A DNA stretch of 64,000 nt, taken from the NCBI GenBank assembly GCA_949752735.1, contig OX457038.1:21567655-21631654 (forward strand), given 5' to 3'. The translations under genes were made by a program, and so were the position numbers. Within the stretch, counting starts at the first letter, position 1, and every line of letters starts with the position of its first letter. The stretch comes from Lumbricus terrestris (lineage: Eukaryota > Annelida > Clitellata > Crassiclitellata > Lumbricidae). The notes under the pieces are model-generated. The model ran no database searches, had not been told where the DNA came from, and worked only from the letters and a program-made list of their open reading frames with translations. Shown in pieces: positions 37,266 through 42,356 of this stretch.

Positions 37266-39482
37266 TGTGAGAAAGTAGAGATTGTCTTATTATAGTTAAT
37301 ATGAGTCTTTATTATCCATTAATAAGACCTTGCAACGTTGGGCCGATTATATAGAGCTGTATGTAAGAACTTAGGAAGCTGCCAACGGTCTGCTTTTCTG
37401 GTCCAATTCCTGATAACTGTAGGGCATGCACGTGATAGATACGTGTTCAGCATAGTCCTAGGTCAACTTGACCTGACCGACTGTACTCGAGGCCGAAATG
37501 CAGCGTCCTCGTGCCCTGGACTCGTGCCAAGCGTGCTGCTGACGTCACTCGCGTCCCTACGAGCCAAAAAGCCTATAAAACAGACCTGAAACGCCCAAAC
37601 GCCGCCTTCGCCAGAAATCGTGTCGACGTGAGAGCTGTGCCAGTGGAAGCCGGAATTCACTTCGAGAATGGGTTGTGCCCGTAGACGTCCGTCTTCGAGA
37701 ATCATGAGTGTTTAGCAAGTTTTATACAGTGAAAGAGTTTTAGTATAGTTAGGCCTTCGCCAGAAATCGTGTCGACGTGAGAGCCGTGCCAGTGGAAGCC
37801 GGAATTCACTTCGAGAATGGGTTGTGCCCGTAGACGTCCGTCTTCGTGAATCATGAGTATTAGTGTGTTTTAAGCAACGGAAATTAAGTATATTTAGGCC
37901 TTCGCCAGAGATCGTGTCCGACGTGGAACTACGCCAGTGGAAGCAGCGAATCTTCACTTCGGAATTGGGTCGTGCCCGTAGACGTCCGTCTTCGTGAACC
38001 ATGAGTTTTAGCAAGTTTTATACCGTGAAAGGAATTTAAGTATAGCTAGGCCTTCGTCTGGAATCGTTGCGTTATATAGTGTGAATTTAAGTCTGTAAGT
38101 TTAGGCCTTCGAGTGAATCGTGAAGTGAAGCTTACTGCGAAATTATTGAGTTATTATCGAGAAGAATTAGTCTGTAGTTAGGGCCTTCGATTGAATCGTG
38201 ATTGTGAGATTATTGAGAATGAAGCCAGTGCATTAAGTCTGTAGTTTAGGCCTTCGTGTGAGACGTGATCGAGGAGATTAGTGTTCGTACGGAATCAAAG
38301 TACTGCACGGAATTCATCTTCAATGTGTGTGCGAAACGACGGATCTGATGCGGAATTTACGACGGAAAGCACGGAATTCTTAGGAGACGTATCGAGGCGA
38401 TTCTGTGTGTAATTTCTGTTCTGTTATTGACCGCGTCAGCTGTTTTTGTGAGGACATTGTGGTGAGTAAGGGAATTTCCCCGGGCGTGAAATTTACCCAA
38501 TTTATACAGCCGTCGCGCCTTGCAACAGCCAGACCGATAGCGAAAGCAGAATAACTTAGTGACCTGACGACTGTGTAGACCGAACGTTAATTCTACCATT
38601 ATTATTATAGGCGTGTGATTATTCTTGTTAGACTAGTGCAATCCATATATCCGCTTGGTTAATACAAAAGGATTTATTCCACAATGTCAGTCTCTTCGTT
38701 GCTGCAAATGGGTGTAAATGATGATGATGTTGATGATGATGTGAATGCGTGTATAGATAGGCCCAATGTGACTGTGGCATCGCCCATGACCCAGACTGAG
38801 ATTATGCTGATACGTTTGACACAGACTTTGAATGGAATAAATGAACGGGTGAAAACTATGGATGAACGAGCGAAAACTATGGATGAACGAGTGAGAAATA
38901 TGGATGTGAGAATGGAGGAAACTAGGGACGGTATGAGTGAAGTGATGGGACGAATGCGTGAAGTAATGTATGATCAGGATGAGTTGAGGAGGCAGATTTC
39001 CGGGAGAGATATGGGAGACAGGCCCATGCCTGGCCCACACCTGGAAATGGAAATGGATGGATTGGGTGAACTGAATGAAGTAAGGGGGGTGAGTTTGCAG
39101 AATCGACGATCGCACACGAACTCAGGTCCTGAAGAGAATAGGATTGCAGATAATGTTTCTGCCGGCCAAATAACCACTCGGACACCCGTCACAGAAGAAG
39201 AAACCCGGCCTAGCAGAAGCAGGGTAAGGTGTAGTGAGCGACTTCGAGGTAGGAGTCACCGAGACTATGCCACGCTAGACCGGGTAGGCTTCCGCTCACC
39301 CCCTGAAGACGATCGTCGACCCCCGGAATTCGGATTGGGGGCGGTATCCAAACGGGTCGGAGTAGCGCCCTTCCCGGCCGCTCCCATGATGACGTGGATC
39401 CCTAACGGGGGAGGGGCCCTCACTGAAGAAGCGCCAGTCCCAAGGGACGAGGAGCGACTTCACAGGGGGGGTGGCATCTACA
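37266..39482 (+). repeat. 5' LTR of RT-less element
   Basis: 2,217 bp, from TGTGAGAAAG to GGCATCTACA. A TATAAAA box at 37,574-37,580 puts the start of R near 37,605, so most of the LTR is a long R-U5. Three tandem repeats of about 147 bp starting at GGCCTTCGCCAGA (37,607; 37,754; 37,899) and shorter GGCCTTCG repeats follow. The LTR ORF begins at 38,684. Confidence 0.9.
37574..37580 (+). promoter_or_regulatory. TATA box in the 5' LTR
   Basis: TATAAAA, about 30 bp before the start of the GGCCTTCGCC repeats. It is the only strong TATA motif in the LTR and recurs in the 3' LTR at about 44,249. It implies that the LTR ORF lies downstream of the transcription start. Confidence 0.55.

Positions 39483-42356: not shown

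What the first reader, a model, noticed from the sequence alone, without database searches (positions are those of the whole stretch)
38684..42356. Gag reading frame that appears to start inside the LTR and cross the primer-binding site
The 2.2-kb LTR holds a 260-codon coiled-coil ORF downstream of its TATA box, so it would be the first ORF of the genomic RNA. In the 3' LTR (six G) this ORF reaches the LTR end in exactly the frame that gag-protease uses after the 5' LTR; the 5' LTR has seven G. The gag frame has no ATG at its 5' edge and stays open upstream into the LTR. So the ancestral element, or a frameshifted product, would make one polyprotein whose N-terminus is LTR-encoded and whose coding passes through the primer-binding site. 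Typical LTR retrotransposons begin gag after that site.
Basis: partly seen in the sequence, partly recalled or inferred. Interest (0 to 1): 0.88.

Follow-up and report, generated by a model that had tools for sequence, protein, structure and literature searches.

The report
Retrotransposon Gag starting inside its LTR
Ty3/gypsy-type jumping elements in this genome start their main protein inside the terminal repeat and read on through the site where the tRNA primer binds, an arrangement we otherwise found described only for the yeast element Ty1, where the part before the primer site is far shorter.

Summary
The window element (LTRs 37266-39482, 43941-46156; TSD ATAT) has an LTR ORF from ATG 38684/45359 that reaches the LTR end in the gag frame in the 3' LTR and is out of frame in the 5' LTR. 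Of 23 junction loci in the same genome, 17 keep the phase and 15 read without a stop from the LTR ATG through the primer-binding site into gag; only the window copy has seven G. In the 15 open copies the LTR ORF shows pooled pN/pS 0.357. Over all 23, 11 of 14 distinct gaps in the ORF are multiples of three, against 2 of 23 upstream. Three copies have one 2,121-2,151-codon frame from the LTR ATG to the end of pol; protease, RT, RNase H and integrase follow in Ty3/gypsy order. The window copy lacks RT, RNase H and the integrase core. A diverged branch, with a solo LTR at 22592-24529, has the same design. Ty1 is a precedent for a primer site inside GAG; here 251-326 codons are LTR-encoded. RNA and peptide evidence is missing.

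The parts
37266..39482 (+). 5' LTR, TG...CA, with seven G in the run near its end
37262..37265 (.). target-site duplication ATAT (5' copy)
37574..37580 (+). TATA-box-like TATAAAA (consensus match only; start of transcription not shown)
38684..39508 (+). LTR ORF of the 5' LTR, 274 codons, out of the gag frame at the LTR end in this copy
39485..39505 (+). primer-binding site region TGGCGACGAGCGATTGGGATT, inside the open gag frame; the match to tRNA-Ser(GCU) is recalled, not tested
39471..42356 (+). Gag-protease frame (tool start GTG 39471; frame open from 39393; first ATG 39534); aspartic protease found, no RT, RNase H or integrase
42921..43730 (+). ORF2, 269 aa, no Pfam match, conserved in the five relatives fetched
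43928..43939 (+). polypurine tract before the 3' LTR (by inspection)
43941..46156 (+). 3' LTR, six G in the run
45359..46156 (+). LTR ORF of the 3' LTR, 266 codons to the LTR end, in the frame that gag uses
46157..46160 (.). target-site duplication ATAT (3' copy)
22592..24529 (+). solo LTR of a diverged branch, TAAG on both sides
23573..24466 (+). homologous LTR ORF in the solo LTR, 297 codons, stops 63 nt before the LTR end in this copy

Best explanation
This is a family of Ty3/gypsy-type LTR retrotransposons whose main protein, Gag-Pol in full copies and Gag-protease in shortened ones, starts at an ATG inside the LTR, so that 251 to 326 N-terminal codons lie in the LTR, followed by the primer-binding site read as codons, then Gag, protease, RT, RNase H and integrase in one frame. 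Shown: the continuous frame in many copies, purifying selection on the LTR part, the domain order. Inferred: the LTR promoter makes an RNA whose first long ORF is this one; one polyprotein is translated and cut by the protease; its LTR-encoded, coiled-coil-like N-terminus is a part of Gag; the primer site has to be clear of ribosomes before reverse transcription starts, as would also hold for Ty1. The window copy is a young, pol-less derivative whose two LTRs now differ in the run that sets the frame.
For: 17 of 23 junction loci keep the phase at the LTR end; 15 of 23 cross the primer site in frame without a stop and 13 of 23 are open to the end of the piece. Pooled pN/pS over the LTR ORF 0.357, pN below pS in 105 of 105 pairs of 15 open copies. 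Over all 23 loci 11 of 14 distinct gaps in the LTR ORF are multiples of three, against 2 of 23 in the 600 nt of LTR upstream. Two copies with a replaced LTR tail (L029, L031) keep the phase. Frame continuous by coordinates over 2,121, 2,151 and 2,139 codons in three copies. PR-RT-RH-IN in four of four 9-kb-copy pieces scanned; best PDB match Ty3 Gag-Pol, E 2.5e-116. A metagenome relative, P0001 (92% identical over 57% of the query), reaches the LTR end in the same frame. Diverged branch: five of five loci with both LTR end and primer site keep the phase and four of these five (L051, L052, L055, L073) read on to the end of the piece; six of six further pairs, chosen for long frames, cross. First Met after the LTR end is at codon 46-49 in the four open ones.
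Against: 8 of 23 junction loci do not cross in frame, the window copy among them. The window solo LTR stops 63 nt before its end, and L047 stops about 20 nt after its LTR end. The metagenome relative P0002 seems to change frame near its C-terminus (inferred from the protein; its DNA was not seen). In 14 of 15 open main-family copies an ATG lies 16-24 codons after the LTR end, so a shorter Gag could also be made. Selection on protein could not be shown close to the junction: the last 35 LTR columns are mostly gaps (1 usable pair) and the 17 columns after the LTR end had 48 nonsynonymous and no synonymous changes over 55 pairs. A first gap count of 11 of 11 multiples of three was made on copies chosen for an open frame and is therefore biased. 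The leader has 8 short upstream ATGs, so the way of initiation is unexplained. No RNA or peptide evidence.
Confidence: 0.88

Rival explanations
1. Two proteins: the LTR ORF is an independent accessory protein, and Gag starts at its own ATG after the primer site (39534 in the window), by reinitiation or leaky scanning; the shared frame is incidental.
For: An ATG 16-24 codons after the LTR end in 14 of 15 open main-family copies; in the window's 5' LTR the upstream ORF stops at 39508, 26 nt before ATG 39534.
Against: In-frame continuity without a stop in 15 of 23 copies; one open copy (L022) lacks that ATG, the next being at codon 58; in four open loci of the diverged branch the first Met is at codon 46-49 and the frame is again continuous; most indels in the LTR ORF keep the frame (11 of 14).
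Confidence: 0.09
2. Accident: the LTR ORF and the matching phase are chance, kept only because copies are young.
For: The window copy itself is out of frame in its 5' LTR; LTR pairs are 99.5-100% identical where compared (the last on partial pieces).
Against: 0 of 1000 shuffles reach the ORF length for either LTR; protein similarity between the two branches (E 4e-6) without DNA similarity in blastn at word 7; pN/pS 0.357 and dN/dS 0.31-0.63 in the second branch.
Confidence: 0.01
3. A captured gene in the LTR, unrelated to Gag function, that happens to be fused.
For: No Pfam family reaches its cut-off with the LTR ORF.
Against: Present in two diverged branches of one element type at the same place before Gag. 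Copies outside LTRs were not looked for.
Confidence: 0.02

Closest known systems
Ty1 (Saccharomyces cerevisiae, Pseudoviridae)
   Same: GAG starts upstream of the primer-binding site, which lies inside the GAG ORF (PMC4974528, passages seen; 5' UTR nt 1-53, then the AUG, PBS nt 95-104 in PMC5454406, passages seen).
   Different: Other superfamily (here RT comes before integrase, best match Ty3); in Ty1 about 14 codons precede the PBS (worked out from those coordinates), here 251-326.
Ty3/gypsy elements (Metaviridae)
   Same: PR-RT-RH-IN order, PBS next to the LTR, 4-bp TSD, best PDB match Ty3.
   Different: In the textbook scheme gag and pol lie between the LTRs (PMC8220671, passages seen).
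Diaspora (plant gypsy element with long LTRs)
   Same: Long LTRs and one Gag-Pol frame (PMC1142308, passages seen).
   Different: There the gag start codon lies 873 bp after the LTR, the opposite arrangement.
Gag-only non-autonomous LTR elements (TR-GAG of plants)
   Same: Gag without pol, thought to be mobilised in trans (search listing only; the rest recalled).
   Different: The window copy keeps a protease and an LTR-encoded N-terminus; relatives with pol lie in the same genome.

Membership tests
Ty3/gypsy (Metaviridae) | Protease, RT, RNase H, integrase in that order | tested here: met
   Four of four pieces of 9-kb relatives; the window copy itself shows protease only.
Ty3/gypsy (Metaviridae) | RT closest to Ty3-type sequences | tested here: inconclusive
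   Best PDB hit Ty3-G Gag-Pol, E 2.5e-116; no RT tree was built.
Ty3/gypsy (Metaviridae) | TG...CA LTRs with short TSD, PBS after 5' LTR, PPT before 3' LTR | tested here: met
   PBS and PPT by inspection.
Ty3/gypsy (Metaviridae) | gag and pol wholly between the LTRs | tested here: not met
   ORF starts in the LTR in 15 of 23 junction loci; this is the usual layout rather than a taxonomic criterion.
Ty1-like (Pseudoviridae) | PBS inside the GAG ORF | tested here: met
Ty1-like (Pseudoviridae) | Integrase before RT | tested here: not met
   It works like Ty1 in this one respect but is not a member.
Elements primed by tRNA-Ser(GCU) | PBS complementary to the 3' end of that tRNA of the host | not tested
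   The match is recalled; no tRNA gene lies in the window.

The most novel reading that the evidence does not exclude
Because the Gag N-terminus lies in the LTR, each 3' LTR and each solo LTR left by recombination starts out with promoter, start codon and the coiled-coil Gag N-terminus. Solo LTRs would then be a growing stock of small genes for a Gag fragment that poisons particle assembly in trans, a built-in copy-number control that strengthens as the family accumulates.
Probability: 0.1. Interest if true: 0.85.

Novelty: new variant of a known kind. Interest (0 to 1): 0.6.

Why it matters
It shows that an LTR can be a conserved protein-coding part of Gag on the scale of 250-330 codons in Ty3/gypsy-type elements, and that the primer-binding site can be read as codons at the same time. 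Annotation that places gag between the LTRs would cut off this N-terminus, and solo LTRs can carry a protein-coding remnant, as the one in this window does. It makes the competition between translation and primer binding testable in a lineage independent of Ty1.

Tried and rejected
Frameshift at the G run as the normal mode: rejected, since 1 of 23 loci has seven G; for that copy a mutation after insertion and a homopolymer error in the assembly are both open. My first reading, that the window solo LTR ends in phase with gag, was wrong: five relatives of that branch pass the LTR end in another phase, and the solo copy has one of 3 gaps that is not a multiple of three against L051. In one search the phase printed for L047 was off because the alignment ended two bases early; one search corrects it.

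Protein database: the LTR ORF gave 2 hits among 1546 candidates (P0001 ena, P0002 jgi); two Gag searches gave none. Five viral-contig scans and one genome-contig scan found no relative. A capsid model had mean pLDDT 38.4 and was discarded. A PDB search of ORF2 gave nothing up to E 1. Codon-usage scores favour the ORF frame of the LTR ORF in all four stretches tested, but for the solo ORF not in its last third. Paper searches on gag starting in, or overlapping, the LTR or PBS listed no title or abstract start that describes an animal case; apart from the passages named, the papers were not read. Subscription papers and Repbase entries were not searched.

Full report
What is there. The window holds an LTR element with LTRs at 37266-39482 and 43941-46156 (99.6% identical, TSD ATAT). 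Inside the LTR an ORF starts at 38684/45359. In the 3' LTR it runs 266 codons to the LTR end, at a codon boundary; in the 5' LTR the G run is one base longer and the ORF stops at 39508. The gag-protease frame is open from 39393 and runs through the LTR end and PBS to 42356; its first ATG is at 39534. Shuffles of either LTR never gave an ORF of that length (0 of 1000 each).

Other copies. G000, the window's own assembly, has 1,056,305,194 bases. A 301-base junction query gave 44 matches, 40 of 66 candidates having been scored; 23 loci, L009 (the window) to L031, hold LTR end, PBS and gag start. At the LTR end 17 of 23 are in the phase of gag. From the LTR ATG, 15 of 23 read across the PBS in that frame without a stop; 13 of 23 stay open to the end of the piece, and L025 and L029 stop later (576 and 410 codons). 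L023 keeps the phase but has a stop before the LTR end, L028 stops just after the LTR end. L009, L016, L019, L021, L024 and L026 are out of phase. The longest G run is seven in 1 of 23 (the window), six in 17, and shorter in 5. The copies are related, so these are not independent events.

Selection. In the 15 open copies (8 of 23 dropped because they are not open), pooled pN/pS was 0.357 for the LTR ORF (pN below pS in 105 of 105 pairs), 0.712 for the first 250 columns after the LTR (82 of 103 pairs with at least 3 changes) and 0.166 for the rest (89 of 89). Along the LTR ORF it rises from 0.253 through 0.418 to 0.49 (columns 1-100, 101-200, 201-280). The last 35 LTR columns are mostly gaps (1 usable pair), and the 17 columns after the LTR end showed 48 nonsynonymous and no synonymous changes summed over 55 pairs, so the junction itself gives no support for selection on protein; the PBS is presumably held at the DNA level. 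Distinct gaps: on all 23 loci, 11 of 14 in the LTR ORF are multiples of three, against 2 of 23 in the 600 nt upstream; on the 15 open copies 11 of 11 against 1 of 21, a count biased by the choice of open copies. Two copies with a different LTR tail, L029 and L031, keep the phase.

Full-length relatives. Pieces of four 9-kb copies carry protease, RT, RNase H and integrase in one frame. By coordinates that frame continues the one from the LTR ATG in three copies, 2,121, 2,151 and 2,139 codons; the fourth (L029/L042) is interrupted at codon 410. The best PDB match is Ty3. Relative to L040 the window copy lacks the segments that hold RT, RNase H and the integrase core.

A second branch. The window also holds a solo LTR at 22592-24529 (TAAG on both sides) with a homologous ORF: E 4e-6 against the main LTR ORF and 7e-11 against P0002. 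Of nine pairs of plus-strand frames only the ORF pair stands out (score 118, the 8 others at most 52), and blastn at word 7 finds nothing. Outside the coiled coil the similarity is weaker (2 of 500 local shuffles reach it for the main ORF, 0 of 500 for P0002). With this ORF as query G000 gave 163 matches, some of them pieces of one place, 132 of 1476 candidates having been scored and the list being cut; 31 listed places have open frames of 753-2134 codons, 10 of them over 1,700, and 2 of the 31 carry a stop inside the matched part. Where the LTR ends was checked in a part of these only. L047, L051, L052, L055 and L073 all keep the same phase at the LTR end; L051, L052, L055 and L073 read on to the end of the piece and L047 stops about 20 nt after the LTR end. 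For L051, L055, L073 and L047 the LTR end was set by comparing the two LTRs, for L052 by motif. Six more pairs, picked because they have long frames, all cross (6 of 6). In the four open loci the first Met after the LTR end is at codon 46-49, which speaks against a start close behind the PBS. pN is below pS in 6 of 6 pairs, dN/dS 0.31-0.63.

Metagenome relatives. P0001 reads ...ERLHRGVAST and then leaves the element, so its LTR ORF reaches the LTR end in the same frame; P0002 is 50% identical, starts MSVSSLL and seems to leave the frame near its C-terminus. Their DNA was not seen.

Mechanism. Shown: one continuous coding frame that starts in the LTR and passes the PBS, with purifying selection on the LTR part. 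Inferred: a single polyprotein, cut by its protease. Open: where transcription starts, and how ribosomes reach the ATG past 8 short upstream ATGs (10 in the solo LTR).

Known or new. In Ty1 the PBS lies in GAG (PMC4974528; PMC5454406; passages seen). So coding through the PBS is not unheard of. The size of the LTR-encoded part and its conservation in Ty3/gypsy-type elements were not described in any listing seen in the searches named under Tried and rejected.

Noticed in passing
46841-54172: A second LTR element with identical 519-bp LTRs (46841-47359, 53654-54172; GTCTC on both sides), a 399-aa coiled-coil-like ORF overlapping a 1496-aa ORF with integrase upstream of RT/RNase H, the pol order described for Gmr1. 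Its ORFs start after its LTR.
   Followed up: partly
42921-43730: ORF2 downstream of gag-pol: 269 aa, no Pfam or PDB match, present in the five relatives fetched, pooled pN/pS 0.309 with pN below pS in 15 of 15 pairs. A conserved extra protein of unknown function.
   Followed up: partly
G000 places listed: LTR-to-LTR spacings near 4.7, 6.0 and 7.4-7.6 kb recur; the shorter ones go with open frames of about 1,040-1,160 codons, which suggests recurrent pol-less forms that keep the frame.
   Followed up: no
39448-39482; L029, L031: The last LTR codons before the PBS vary between copies and are of another sequence altogether in L029 and L031, with the phase kept.
   Followed up: partly
27415-28728 (-): 437-aa ORF with an HSP20/alpha-crystallin domain, E 2.2e-16, two stretches.
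   Followed up: no
37604-38067: Three tandem copies of a unit of about 149 nt just downstream of the TATA box in the LTR.
   Followed up: no
25743-26225, 26342-27078, 35100-36266, 59835-60729: Simple and tandem repeat arrays.
   Followed up: no
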